Source: a virus. Taken from it: a stretch of 64,000 nucleotides of DNA. Shown here one piece after another: positions 57,232-63,866 of the stretch. The position numbers and the translations under genes were made by a program. Location of the stretch: positions 103,827 through 167,826 of the IMG/VR virus record IMGVR_UViG_3300046810_000101, one strand, 5' to 3'. Within the stretch, counting starts at the first letter, position 1, and each line of letters opens with the position of its first letter. The notes under the pieces were generated by a model. The model saw only the letters and a program-made list of their open reading frames with translations. It was not told the origin of the DNA and searched no databases.

Positions 57232-57353
57232 GGATGGAATTTTATCTACGCGCGTCTACCAATTCCGCCAACCCGACTCATTGTGCCGGGTGAGGGACTT
57301 GAACCCCCAATGTACGTCCGCCAAATGGAATGATTAAATTGCTGTTACCATCC
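57232..57353 (-). tRNA. Circularly permuted tRNA-Leu-like locus
   Basis: In transcript order: GGATGG, TAACAGCA, a leader, a tRNA 3' half (variable region, T-arm GGGGG-TTCAAGT-CCCTC at 57292-57308, acceptor ACCCGGC), a seven-base loop, then a tRNA 5' half (acceptor GTCGGGT, D-arm GGCGGAATTGGTAGACGC) and CCATCC. The acceptor strands pair 7/7 with one G-U. The outer flanks pair, including AATTTAATC with GATAAAATT (one mismatch). The open ends fall at the anticodon region. The anticodon itself cannot be read. Confidence 0.55.
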
Positions 57354-57381
57354 TAAAACTTTTTACATCAAAATCTTTACT

Positions 57382-57535
57382 GGATACCGCCCGATTCACG
57401 CCGGGGGTTGTGGTCGCTGTCCTACCATTAGACCAACTGTCCCGTTCTCCATTGCGACTTAACACGTAGGCGGGCACAGTATCGGAATCGAACCGATATT
57501 AGCGACTTGAGGCTGAAATGATGCTGTCAGTATCC
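57382..57535 (-). tRNA. Circularly permuted tRNA-like locus
   Basis: In transcript order: GGATAC, TGACAGCA, leader, GTCGC, variable TAAT, T-arm ATCGG-TTCGATT-CCGAT (57481-57497), acceptor 3' strand, 26-base linker, acceptor 5' strand GGACAGT, D-arm GGTCTAATGGTAGGAC, GCGAC, then a hairpin and GTATCC. GTCGC/GCGAC is a perfect 5-bp anticodon stem, and acceptor strands pair 6/7 (or nine pairs with one bulge). All parts of a tRNA are present in permuted order with the break in the anticodon loop. Confidence 0.6.
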
Positions 57536-57544
57536 AAAACTAAA

Positions 57545-57637
57545 TGATGCAACGACAATGCCATGTTCGAGGGGTGGTTTCACCTTCCCGGTCCCATTCA
57601 TGGCTTTACAGGCCACTAGGCCAGCGTGAATGCATCA
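57545..57637 (-). ncRNA. Structured RNA of unknown kind in the tRNA array
   Basis: Outer stem TGATGCA/TGCATCA encloses nested hairpins (CATTCA/TGAATG with TGGC/GCCA inside, and GGTG/CACC). I could not fit a tRNA in normal or permuted order. It neighbours the permuted loci. Confidence 0.35.
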
Positions 57638-57644
57638 AAATCTT

Positions 57645-57836
57645 TTAATCCCAACCCCAGTACCACTTCGCATATGCAGAAGCTTTCACAGGGTCATCAA
57701 ACAATTTACCGAGAACCACCTTACGAGGATTTGGATTCGGTCTGACTCGCGATGTATTACCAAACACAACAAACATCCTAGCGTAACGAATAGTTCCACC
57801 GGGACCAGCTTTTCGTGCCATAAAAAGGTCGATCAT
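57645..57836 (-). CDS. Small basic protein of unknown function
   Basis: A 63-residue very basic protein inside the tRNA array (MARKAGPGG stretch, tryptophan-rich end). A GTG lies one codon above. It may bind RNA. Not recognised. Confidence 0.5.
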   Translation of the reverse strand: MIDLFMARKAGPGGTIRYARMFVVFGNTSRVRPNPNPRKVVLGKLFDDPVKASAYAKWYWGWD

Positions 57837-57852
57837 CACGATTCCTTAAATT

Positions 57853-57927
57853 TGGGGTGAACTGGAGATTCGAACTCCAACAACCGGGTCACAACCGGAA
57901 GACTGTATCCAGACAGTACGGGTCCAC
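57853..57927 (-). tRNA. tRNA-His (GUG)
   Basis: Anticodon loop TTGTGAC, T-arm TGGAG-TTCGAAT-CTCCA, C73 before CCA (the His discriminator), acceptor with one mismatch near position 7. First tRNA after the promoter at 57979-58007. Confidence 0.85.
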
Positions 57928-57945
57928 TATTAAGCATTTGTTTCT

Positions 57946-57977
57946 GTTTCAAGTCTCGGTTGCCGTTGACTTGAAAC
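57946..57977 (-). repeat. Inverted repeat in the tRNA operon leader
   Basis: Perfect 10-bp arms GTTTCAAGTC / GACTTGAAAC with a 12-base loop, immediately after the promoter -10. It could be an operator or a hairpin at the 5' end of the tRNA transcript. Confidence 0.7.
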
Positions 57978-57978
57978 A

Positions 57979-58007
57979 AATATACCACTGTTTTGGGTGT
58001 TTCTAAA
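57979..58007 (-). promoter_or_regulatory. Phage promoter, TTTAGA-N17 class
   Basis: TTTAGA (58002-58007), 17 bp, TATATT (57979-57984), driving the His to Cys part of the tRNA region. Confidence 0.75.
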
Positions 58008-58012
58008 CACAA

Positions 58013-58183
58013 TCAGTCAAAAATATTCAAAATATCTGCAACCGCTTCTAAACCATCACCTACCGCATCCAGAACCGACCAGCTACTGCTAGAGGATTGG
58101 TGCGATTTGTACGGCTGATACACAGGCTTCGGCGTTTCAGCCTCTTGGATCGGTTGCATCAAATTCTCATCTGATTCGGTCAT
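58013..58183 (-). CDS. Small protein of unknown function
   Basis: A 56-residue protein with a serine-rich middle and an acidic hydrophobic C-terminal helix (GDGLEAVADILNIF). The ATG 58183 closely follows the upstream stop. Not recognised. Confidence 0.5.
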   Translation of the reverse strand: MTESDENLMQPIQEAETPKPVYQPYKSHQSSSSSWSVLDAVGDGLEAVADILNIFD

Positions 58184-58185
58184 GC

Positions 58186-58686
58186 TTATCCCCAAGACAG
58201 GTCAAGTGATTCTGAATATTCTGTACTGATCACGATCTTGCGTTCTGATAGGAACGATACCGGTCCAAGCTGGATCGGGAAATCGCCAATATCATAGGAC
58301 AAGGTGATGTGTGGAATGAAGCTAGGATGATCCCACGTTCCGTTGTGAATTTCCATCAGATCAGCATGTCGAGCCGATAGAAAGTCGCAATCGTATTTCA
58401 GGACCAAAGCGTTCTTACCGCTCTGGGTCTTGAACACAGTCAATTCGAACTGATTGGTGTTAGATGTCGGAGCAACCGGATATTCCCCGAACGGAACATA
58501 ATTTGGAAGCGGTCTGCGACTGAATAGAAGCGTGCTATGGAATTTCTGAGCATCAAGAGGATTTGGGATCATCAACGTTTCTTGTAGAAGCCGTAGATCC
58601 CGGATCGTGTACTGGTCAAAATGAACCCCAGCATACGTTCCGTGAACCCCTTCGATTAAGAAGGGGAGCATTTCAATAAAATTCAA
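58186..58686 (-). CDS. acb1: 2H phosphoesterase, Acb1-like anti-CBASS protein
   Basis: A 166-residue protein with both H-x-T/S motifs of 2H phosphoesterases: FHSTLLFS near residue 48 and PHITLSYDIG near 128. The surrounding pattern (IPNPLD before the first, ALVLKYD between, a W near the C-terminal end) follows T4 gene 57B (Acb1, 152 residues), which cuts cyclic oligonucleotide signals of CBASS. The start may be TTG 58686 directly after the upstream stop, or ATG 58671. Confidence 0.8.
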   Translation of the reverse strand: MNFIEMLPFLIEGVHGTYAGVHFDQYTIRDLRLLQETLMIPNPLDAQKFHSTLLFSRRPLPNYVPFGEYPVAPTSNTNQFELTVFKTQSGKNALVLKYDCDFLSARHADLMEIHNGTWDHPSFIPHITLSYDIGDFPIQLGPVSFLSERKIVISTEYSESLDLSWG

Positions 58687-62825: not shown

Positions 62826-62936
62826 GGCTGCATAAACTGTAGTCACCAGACCAGAGTTAGGATTCTCTGCCGGGGATCGAACCCGGTGATTTTCGTCAAA
62901 AGGAAAGTTTAGTTTAATGGGTTGCTGTTAGCAGCC
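62826..62936 (-). tRNA. Probable circularly permuted tRNA-like locus
   Basis: In transcript order: GGCTGC, TAACAGCA, leader with TAAAC, a class II-like variable arm, T-arm CCGGG-TTCGATC-CCCGG (62870-62886), CAGAG, eight-base loop, CTCTG, a weak D-arm-like segment, GTTTA, GCAGCC. TAAAC/GTTTA and CAGAG/CTCTG pair as anticodon and partial acceptor stems. The D-arm lacks a clear GG, so this one is less certain. Confidence 0.4.
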
Positions 62937-62947
62937 GTTCCTGTTTT

Positions 62948-63032
62948 TGGTGCCCCCTGAGAGACTCGAACTCTCACGCCCGAAGGCGCCGGAACCTAAA
63001 TCCGGTGCGTCTACCAATTCCGCCAAAGGGGC
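62948..63032 (-). tRNA. tRNA-Leu (UAG)
   Basis: Class II tRNA, acceptor GCCCCTT, anticodon stem CCGGA/TCCGG, loop TTTAGGT, variable arm CGCC-TTC-GGGCG, T-loop TTCGAGT, A73 and CCA. Confidence 0.92.
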
Positions 63033-63054
63033 ATATCTTGTTGCGTATGTCTTT

Positions 63055-63083
63055 ATTCTACACCATTCGGAACACAATCTAAA
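63055..63083 (-). promoter_or_regulatory. Phage promoter, TTTAGA-N17 class
   Basis: TTTAGA (63078-63083), 17 bp, TAGAAT (63055-63060), just above tRNA-Leu(UAG). Confidence 0.75.
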
Positions 63084-63102
63084 CACTTTCAAAACATATA
63101 TT

Positions 63103-63176
63103 TGGTGGACCGTGCCAGAGTCAAACTGGCCCTTCCTACGTGCAAGGCAGGCGAACTATCGAAATTCTTACAGCCC
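63103..63176 (-). tRNA. tRNA-Ala (UGC)
   Basis: Acceptor GGGCTGT/ACGGTCC includes the G3-U70 pair that defines alanine tRNAs; anticodon loop CTTGCAC, T-loop TTTGACT, A73 and CCA. Confidence 0.88.
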
Positions 63177-63231
63177 GAAGGTTCCAACGTAACAAAGAAC
63201 AAGTCTAAGCCAGTGGATGGAACTCGATTAT

Positions 63232-63306
63232 TGGTGGTTCTGCCCGGTTACGATCCGGGGATCTGTCCTTATGAGGGACTTGGTTTACCAACTAGCCTAC
63301 AGAACC
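63232..63306 (-). tRNA. tRNA-Met or tRNA-Ile2 (CAU)
   Basis: Acceptor GGTTCTG/CAGAACC, anticodon loop CTCATAA, T-loop ATCGTAA with A54, A73 and CCA. A CAU anticodon is elongator Met, or Ile if lysidine-modified. Confidence 0.8.
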
Positions 63307-63372
63307 AAATCGCGGTAACGACATTCTTTCGCTACGATGCACCAACCACGCCGCTGTTCCGTGGTTTGAATT

Positions 63373-63446
63373 TGGTCCCTATAAGAAGAATTGAACTTCT
63401 ATCTTTCGGTTATCAGCCGAGTGCATTACCACTATGCTATATAGGG
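63373..63446 (-). tRNA. tRNA-Ile (GAU)
   Basis: Acceptor CCCTATA/TATAGGG, anticodon loop CTGATAA, T-loop TTCAATT, A73 and CCA. Confidence 0.88.
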
Positions 63447-63451
63447 ATTTA

Positions 63452-63613
63452 TCATTTAAATCTTTCGGTTTGTTCAACCCTGAGTTTGGCGAGATACTTT
63501 CGATAGAACGAACAGATTGCTAAAGCCATCGGATCATCCGACAGTTGCCGCGTTCTAACTTCGTGTTCTAATCGTTGACATTTAGCCAACAGTTTCTTCG
63601 AACCCTTACTCAT
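63452..63613 (-). CDS. Small basic protein in the tRNA array
   Basis: A 53-residue basic, probably helical protein from the ATG at 63613. A longer frame would overlap tRNA-Pro. Not recognised. Confidence 0.5.
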   Translation of the reverse strand: MSKGSKKLLAKCQRLEHEVRTRQLSDDPMALAICSFYRKYLAKLRVEQTERFK

Positions 63614-63631
63614 GGTCAAATACCTTAAATT

Positions 63632-63706
63632 GGTCACTCTACACAGATTCGAACTGTGTCTTCATCGTCCCAAACGACGTGTGCTACCGTTGAACACTAT
63701 AGAGAG
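63632..63706 (-). tRNA. tRNA-Pro (UGG)
   Basis: C1-G72 as usual for Pro, D-stem GTG/CAC, anticodon stem CGTCG/CGATG with loop TTTGGGA, T-arm ACACAG-type, A73 and CCA. One acceptor mismatch (2-71). Confidence 0.85.
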
Positions 63707-63716
63707 AAAATAGACA

Positions 63717-63866
63717 GGATGGCACCCTTAAACTTTTGTATCTGAGGTCAATTTCCGATACGCACACAGTTATTACCCACTGTTCGGTCTAGAATTCCGT
63801 CTAGTCGGTACATCTGGAGCCCTATTGGGCGATCAGTATGGTTTGAGGTTTTGCTGTATTCCATCC
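63717..63866 (-). ncRNA. Long spacer of the ACAGCA family
   Basis: Outer stem GGATGG/CCATCC identical to that of the permuted Leu locus, followed by AATACAGCA. The 150-base interior has a T-arm-like CTAGA-CGGAAT-TCTAG and a D-arm-like CAGT-GGGTAATA-ACTG, so it could be a diverged permuted tRNA. I could not pair acceptor strands. Confidence 0.4.

What the first reader, a model, noticed from the sequence alone, without database searches (positions are those of the whole stretch)
57232..63866. A shared RNA element: GG-N4 stem followed by ACAGCA around permuted tRNAs and spacers
Five loci (60978-61032, 57232-57353, 57382-57535, 62826-62936, 63717-63866) begin with a 6-bp stem strand starting GG, then 2-3 bases, then exact ACAGCA, and end with the complementary strand ending CC. 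The stem sequences differ but the pairing is kept, which is covariation within one genome. In three cases CTGT right after the stem can pair with ACAG. This looks like a recognition element for processing or joining.
Basis: seen in the sequence. Interest (0 to 1): 0.8.

Follow-up and report, generated by a model that had tools for sequence, protein, structure and literature searches.

The report
Phage Y RNAs for a Ro60-like protein
The five repeated stems look like the protein-docking ends of small Y-type RNAs, some shaped like tRNAs, which this phage's relatives and many bacteria keep beside a gene for a Ro60-like RNA-binding protein; they are probably not tRNAs waiting to be cut and rejoined.

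Summary
In detail: five minus-strand copies of stem + 2-3 nt + ACAGCA + matching stem, against 0.006 per shuffle. The best reading is the basal, Ro-binding module of phage Y RNAs. Relatives Milchi and Astolliot carry six copies each and encode a DUF2828/DUF7788 protein near the same tRNA cluster. An AlphaFold2 model of a homologue matches Ro60/Rsr best (Foldseek E 3e-8; VIA Z 20.3 over 403 residues). Near such genes, ACAGCA on the gene's strand sits in the stem frame in 60 of 131 cases (80 phage loci) and 90 of 185 (80 bacterial loci), against 2 of 32 and 3 of 40 on the other strand. The 'permuted tRNAs' have the YrlA layout: T arm, acceptor stem closed by a loop, D arm. Two such phage elements match Rfam YrlA below threshold. 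The few TROVE-type Ro loci sampled keep YrlA mimics without the ACAGCA frame, so the docking module seems to differ by Ro type. Against: this contig is a fragment without the Ro gene, the window copies miss Rfam's YrlA model, and binding is untested. The joining idea is not supported.

The parts
57230..57355 (-). Element 1: 8-bp basal stem P1 (TAGGATGG/CCATCCTG), bulge with ACAGCA (57340-57345), P2, then tRNA mimic: T arm, 7-bp acceptor stem ACCCGGC/GTCGGGT closed by ACAATGA, D arm
   Evidence: MFE fold shows P1, P2, T arm and closed acceptor stem
57380..57537 (-). Element 2: P1 TTGGATAC/GTATCCAG, ACAGCA (57522-57527), tRNA mimic (T arm ATCGG-TTCGATT-CCGAT, acceptor stem closed by a 35-nt loop, D arm)
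60976..61034 (-). Element 3: short type, P1 TAGGTTAC/GTAACCTG, ACAGCA (61018-61023), hairpin insert, no tRNA part
   Evidence: found out-of-sample by model R1, E 0.0012
62824..62938 (-). Element 4: P1 GGCTGC/GCAGCC, ACAGCA (62923-62928), hairpin, T arm CCGGG-TTCGATC-CCCGG, 5-bp closed acceptor stem CAGAG/CTCTG, short D-like hairpin
   Evidence: syntenic orthologue L001 15597-15700 with compensated stem
63715..63868 (-). Element 5: P1 TAGGATGG/CCATCCTG, ACAGCA (63852-63857), multi-hairpin insert without T arm
   Evidence: counterpart beside tRNA-Pro in L011 19214-19424

Best explanation
The five copies are Y-type RNAs of a tRNA-rich phage. Shown: each has a basal stem P1 made by its own ends, a one-sided 5' bulge with ACAGCA, a second stem P2, and a variable insert that is a hairpin, a YrlA-like permuted tRNA mimic, or (element 5) a multi-hairpin of unknown kind; relatives encode near the same tRNA cluster a DUF2828/DUF7788 protein with a predicted Ro60 fold (helical ring part plus vWA domain), and such genes in phages and bacteria have these RNAs beside them. 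Inferred: P1 + ACAGCA is the site bound by the Ro-like ring. The insert is the effector end that either gates the ring's cavity or, as a tRNA mimic, recruits a tRNA-handling enzyme or an exonuclease (as Y RNA joins Rsr to PNPase in Deinococcus), or acts as a tRNA decoy. The RNP would then survey, shield or degrade tRNA and other structured RNA during infection.
For: Chance excluded. Same element with other stems in Milchi, Astolliot and IMG/VR relatives. Milchi XPP60716.1 = phrog_850 'RNA-binding protein', DUF2828+DUF7788. AF2 model of the L025 homologue, pLDDT 82: the top 12 Foldseek PDB hits are all Ro60/Rsr/TROVE, best E 3e-8; VIA Z 20.3, 403 residues, 3.9 A to Ro60 1yvp, while non-Ro rows stop at Z 10.4 and the top ones cover only the vWA domain. 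Strand-specific enrichment beside the gene in 80 phage and 80 bacterial loci; 36 of 80 phage loci have a strict short element within 1 kb on the gene's strand and 0 of 80 on the other, bacterial 30 and 0 of 80; de novo word ranking in bacteria returns CAGCAA and ACAGCA first. Gap of 2 nt in 58 of 60 and 88 of 90; A after ACAGCA in 58 of 60 and 80 of 90. Model R1, built without close relatives, finds the window's short copy and none in the rest of the contig or in T4. Rfam YrlA matches two of these elements: LeBron L021 5508-5616 (E 1.6e-5) and L056 5286-5408 (E 1.4e-5). RNAfold gives the same architecture.
Against: The window's contig has no DUF7788 or TROVE match; it is a fragment lacking roughly the stretch equivalent to Milchi 67-82 kb, where the gene lies in Milchi, so its presence in this phage is inferred. 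Window elements do not match Rfam YrlA, nor do the two L085 mimics. 34 of 80 phage and 44 of 80 bacterial loci show no ACAGCA element within 1 kb under the rule (20 and 37 with NCAGCAA). R1 scores two long window elements weakly (E 0.49, 0.79) and does not list the other two. Profile search of PDB sequences reaches TROVE proteins and Ro60 only at E 0.05-0.32, over the vWA part. No binding or expression data for these RNAs.
Confidence: 0.87

Rival explanations
1. Circularly permuted tRNA genes: the stems bring the ends together, ACAGCA guides cutting and joining, and mature decoding tRNAs result.
For: 57230 and 57380 keep T arm, acceptor stem and canonical D arms in permuted order; ARAGORN allowing introns gives weak Gly/Glu calls.
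Against: No uninterrupted tRNA in 6 of 6 circularised inserts, and the intron-type calls also appear for the LeBron RNA that matches YrlA; acceptor stems closed by 3-4 nt in several relatives; the same frame carries inserts with no tRNA part in phages and bacteria.
Confidence: 0.04
2. A processing signal: the stem is a landing site for RNase III, RNase E or RNase P that separates tRNAs in the polycistron.
For: Elements lie between tightly packed tRNAs, and the stem would define RNA ends.
Against: Elements also occur next to Ro-like genes with no tRNA nearby (L013: 0 tRNAs); ACAGCA lies in a bulge, not at an end; T4, a tRNA-bearing control without the Ro-like gene, has none.
Confidence: 0.05
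3. A cis-acting leader that controls translation of the Ro-like mRNA (autoregulation) rather than a trans-acting RNA.
For: Often 100-350 nt upstream of the gene on the same strand.
Against: Also found just downstream of the gene, in tandem sets of two or three, and kilobases away in the tRNA cluster.
Confidence: 0.04

Closest known systems
Bacterial Y RNA YrlA (Rfam RF02553)
   Same: Stem made by the RNA's ends plus a permuted tRNA-like domain with T arm, acceptor stem closed by a loop and D arm (description in PMC8394870, passages; alignment); gene beside a Ro-family protein.
   Different: Rfam YrlA has a two-sided internal loop (5' AUGCU) where these have NCAGCA on the 5' side only; the TROVE-type loci sampled show YrlA but no NCAGCA frame around it; many of these RNAs have no tRNA domain; several occur per genome.
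Animal Y RNAs and Ro60
   Same: Short RNA whose ends form a stem with a bulge, partnered with a ring-shaped helical + vWA protein; predicted fold matches Ro60.
   Different: Different bulge sequence; the partner has no TROVE match by Pfam. Animal Y RNA details are recalled, no call.
Abundant RNAs of Listeria phage CKA15 proposed as Y RNAs (PMC12282133, passages and section 8)
   Same: CKA15_055, which the authors liken to Rsr, is the DUF7788 protein.
   Different: The RNAs proposed there (CKA15_059-061) overlap a match to ROOL RNA (E 4.4e-17); the ACAGCA elements lie in the unannotated gap between CKA15_056 and _055.
Circularly permuted tRNA genes of algae and archaea
   Same: 3' half precedes 5' half.
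   Different: Acceptor stem stays closed by a loop and no uninterrupted tRNA is recovered on circularisation.

Membership tests
Y RNA / YrlA | Basal stem formed by the RNA's own ends | tested here: met
   5 of 5 window elements
Y RNA / YrlA | Permuted tRNA-like domain: T arm, closed acceptor stem, D arm | tested here: met
   57230 and 57380; 62824 reduced. Not met by 60976 (no tRNA part) and 63715 (no T arm)
Y RNA / YrlA | Match to Rfam RF02553 at gathering score | tested here: not met
   No hit in the window; sub-threshold hits in LeBron and L056 elements. So not filed as RF02553 members
Y RNA / YrlA | Encoded with a Ro-family protein | tested here: inconclusive
   Absent from this fragment; present in Milchi, Astolliot, L011, L025, L026
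Y RNA / YrlA | Binds the Ro/Rsr protein | not testable with these tools
   Needs biochemistry
Ro60/Rsr (for DUF2828/DUF7788) | Helical ring part plus C-terminal vWA fold | tested here: met
   predicted model
Ro60/Rsr (for DUF2828/DUF7788) | Pfam TROVE (PF05731) match | tested here: not met
   0 of 2 records, Milchi and Astolliot
Circularly permuted tRNA | Complete tRNA with anticodon loop after joining | tested here: not met
   0 of 6 without introns; intron-type calls are weak and shared with the LeBron YrlA-like RNA

The most novel reading that the evidence does not exclude
DUF2828/DUF7788 proteins are a second, sequence-distinct Ro lineage in phages, bacteria and perhaps archaea, with its own class of Y RNAs marked by NCAGCA(A). 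The tRNA-mimic effector module is shared with TROVE-type YrlA while the docking module was exchanged, and tRNA-rich phages carry about six such RNAs to guard or police tRNAs against host defence.
Probability: 0.6. Interest if true: 0.82.

Novelty: new variant of a known kind. Interest (0 to 1): 0.74.

Why it matters
It turns an apparent case of permuted tRNA genes in a phage into a testable RNP: a precise candidate RNA docking motif for a protein family found in 681 of 50,697 phage records and in 341 stretches of bacterial and archaeal genomes. It gives a search key for Y RNAs that Rfam's model does not call, suggests that Ro type and docking module changed together while the tRNA mimic was kept, and bears on what phage Ro proteins and tRNA mimics do in tRNA-rich phages.

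Tried and rejected
Permuted-tRNA joining; a LigT/RNA-ligase partner: the adjacent gene annotated 'RNA ligase' in Milchi is Acb1 by Pfam; TROVE by sequence in this phage and relatives (none); Rfam families for the window elements (only tRNAs and chance-level hits); conserved CTGT:ACAG pairing (no); further window copies with a one-mismatch motif (11 matches in the 11-kb region against 5 to 14 in controls, so nothing beyond the known five is claimed); a wider model from the tRNA-mimic alignment A5 was not built because MAFFT blurred the 3' side. The P1 covariation count (7 of 8 pairs changed on both sides) was made on 24 elements chosen for pairing, so it is not independent evidence. In one search, 10 of 31 T-arm elements had no closed acceptor stem under my rule, and 2 of 31 lay on the strand opposite the gene. 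Scan thresholds were set after seeing the window and Milchi copies; the bacterial set was scanned with them. In TROVE locus L194 the NCAGCA rule matched 5 places, one inside a mimic's D arm and none framing a T arm; L191-L193 had none. VIA-align lists no other family above Z 10.4; that is no proof of absence.
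Full report
1. Observation. All five copies stand at the stated coordinates on the minus strand. The window is the end of an IMG/VR phage record classed linear.

2. Relatives. The closest named phages are Pseudomonas phages Milchi (PQ464597) and Astolliot (OM982621), with similar gene and tRNA order. Each carries six ACAGCA elements in the tRNA cluster. Two window elements have syntenic orthologues in which both strands of the stem changed together: Gln-Val interval GGTTAC/GTAACC against GGTTGC/GCAACC; Leu-Glu interval GGCTGC/GCAGCC against GGTTGC/GCAACC (tRNAs).

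3. The partner. Near the same cluster, Milchi encodes a 462-aa protein with DUF2828 and DUF7788, PHROG 850 'RNA-binding protein'. It has no TROVE match. AlphaFold2 on the homologue in IMG/VR locus L025 (87% identical to that of L011, which is 60% identical to Milchi's), with 33 aligned relatives, gave pLDDT 82.4 and pTM 0.80. The first twelve PDB matches by Foldseek are all Ro60, Rsr or TROVE proteins, including a Thermus phage Ro60; VIA-align gives Z 20.3 over 403 residues at 3.9 A to Ro60, with unrelated rows at 10.4 or less. Sequence profiles alone reach these proteins only at E 0.05-0.32. The family is present in 681 of 50,697 phage records. Mycobacteriophage members are already annotated 'Ro-like', and LeBron gp53 is reported as toxic when overproduced (PMC13148394, passages).

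4. Association. In 80 bacterial or archaeal loci (the best 80 of 341) the counts are 90 of 185, 3 of 40 and 26 of 232 (all). These cover 46 of 80 phage and 36 of 80 bacterial loci; with NCAGCAA 60 and 43. So 34 phage and 44 bacterial loci show none with ACAGCA under this rule. Ranking all words inside stem frames in the bacterial set, without prior motif, returns CAGCAA (36 loci) and ACAGCA (25) first; apart from AGCAAA and AGCAAT, which overlap them, the next is TCAGCA with 7. The spacer is 2 nt in 146 of 150 elements and the next base A in 138 of 150.

5. Model. R1, from 24 short elements none of which comes from the window, Milchi, Astolliot, L011, L025 or L026, finds window 60976-61034 (E 0.0012) and the short copies in Milchi, Astolliot and L011, nothing in the rest of the window's contig (L004-L009) and nothing in the T4 and PE09 stretches. 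In whole records T4 has none and PE09 one at E 0.09; both lack DUF7788. R1 does not model long inserts: two long window elements score E 0.49 and 0.79 and two are not listed.

6. Anatomy. RNAfold places ACAGCA in a 5' bulge between P1 and an inner stem, with the inner stem closing directly or nearly so on the 3' side in most of the eleven RNAs folded. Inserts in the window are of three kinds: plain hairpin (60976); tRNA mimic (57230, 57380, reduced in 62824); multi-hairpin (63715). Scanning for T arms inside long elements gave 31, of which 21 have an acceptor stem closed by a loop, in most followed by a recognisable D arm. One of these, in LeBron next to its Ro-like gene, is a full-length match to Rfam YrlA (E 1.6e-5, below gathering), and another, in L056, likewise (E 1.4e-5). 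In LeBron that RNA has GCAGCA in the frame and is flanked by two short ACAGCA elements. As contrast, of 369 genomes searched 4 had a TROVE gene over the cut-off; 3 of these 4 loci have YrlA by Rfam, and none of the YrlA copies sits in an NCAGCA frame (L194 has five unrelated rule matches). Four loci are few.

7. Mechanism. Published work describes YrlA as a stem that tethers Rsr and a tRNA-like domain, the whole joining Rsr to PNPase (PMC8394870, passages), and suggests that the mimic may act as a competitive inhibitor of an anticodon nuclease (PMC7790460, passages). By analogy I infer Ro-like docking at P1/ACAGCA and an effector role for the insert. Listeria phages place an RtcB-type RNA ligase gene shortly downstream of the Ro-like gene, which recalls bacterial rsr-Y RNA-rtcBA operons. 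Binding, expression and function in this phage are not shown.

8. Missing gene. The contig starts at the equivalent of about Milchi 82 kb and ends near Milchi 67 kb, so some 15 kb are missing, including the place of the Ro-like gene at Milchi 74,857-76,245.

9. Novelty. Y RNAs, YrlA mimics and their presence in mycobacteriophages are known (Chen et al. 2014, cited; not held). My searches listed no paper on the NCAGCA module or on DUF2828 as a Ro protein; two key Y RNA papers are not held, so part may be in print. I rate it a new variant of a known kind.

Noticed in passing
L105 2830-3381 (Listeria phage CKA15, OR088597.1): Match to ROOL RNA RF03087 (E 4.4e-17, slightly below gathering) over CKA15_059-061, which PMC12282133 reports as the most abundant transcripts and guesses to be Y RNAs or sRNAs; my paper search for ROOL with Listeria phage found none.
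   Followed up: partly
window 58186-58686, minus: Anti-CBASS Acb1 family gene (Pfam E 1.9e-32); its Milchi counterpart is annotated 'RNA ligase'.
   Followed up: no
window 57148-57224, minus: tRNA with anticodon CTA (amber suppressor type; ARAGORN calls it Pyl), also in Milchi and Astolliot at the same place.
   Followed up: no
window 57855-57930 and 61763-61846, minus: tRNA-like stretches not called by ARAGORN or Rfam; by eye a His (GTG) and a Ser (GCT) tRNA with encoded CCA.
   Followed up: no
window 60080-60793, minus: Alginate lyase family gene (PF08787, E 3.9e-40) inside the tRNA cluster; the gene at that place in Milchi is labelled homing endonuclease and has no Pfam match.
   Followed up: no
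L020 6812-8023 and L105 from 7212: RtcB-type RNA ligase gene a few genes downstream of the Ro-like gene in Listeria phages.
   Followed up: no
L111-L190: DUF2828/DUF7788 Ro-like genes on contigs titled as Clostridia, Lachnospiraceae, Akkermansia, Treponema and one Woesearchaeota MAG, many with tandem ACAGCA elements; not checked whether prophage.
   Followed up: partly
L018 7908-8309: Permuted tmRNA called by ARAGORN in a phage contig that also has the Ro-like gene and tRNA mimics.
   Followed up: no
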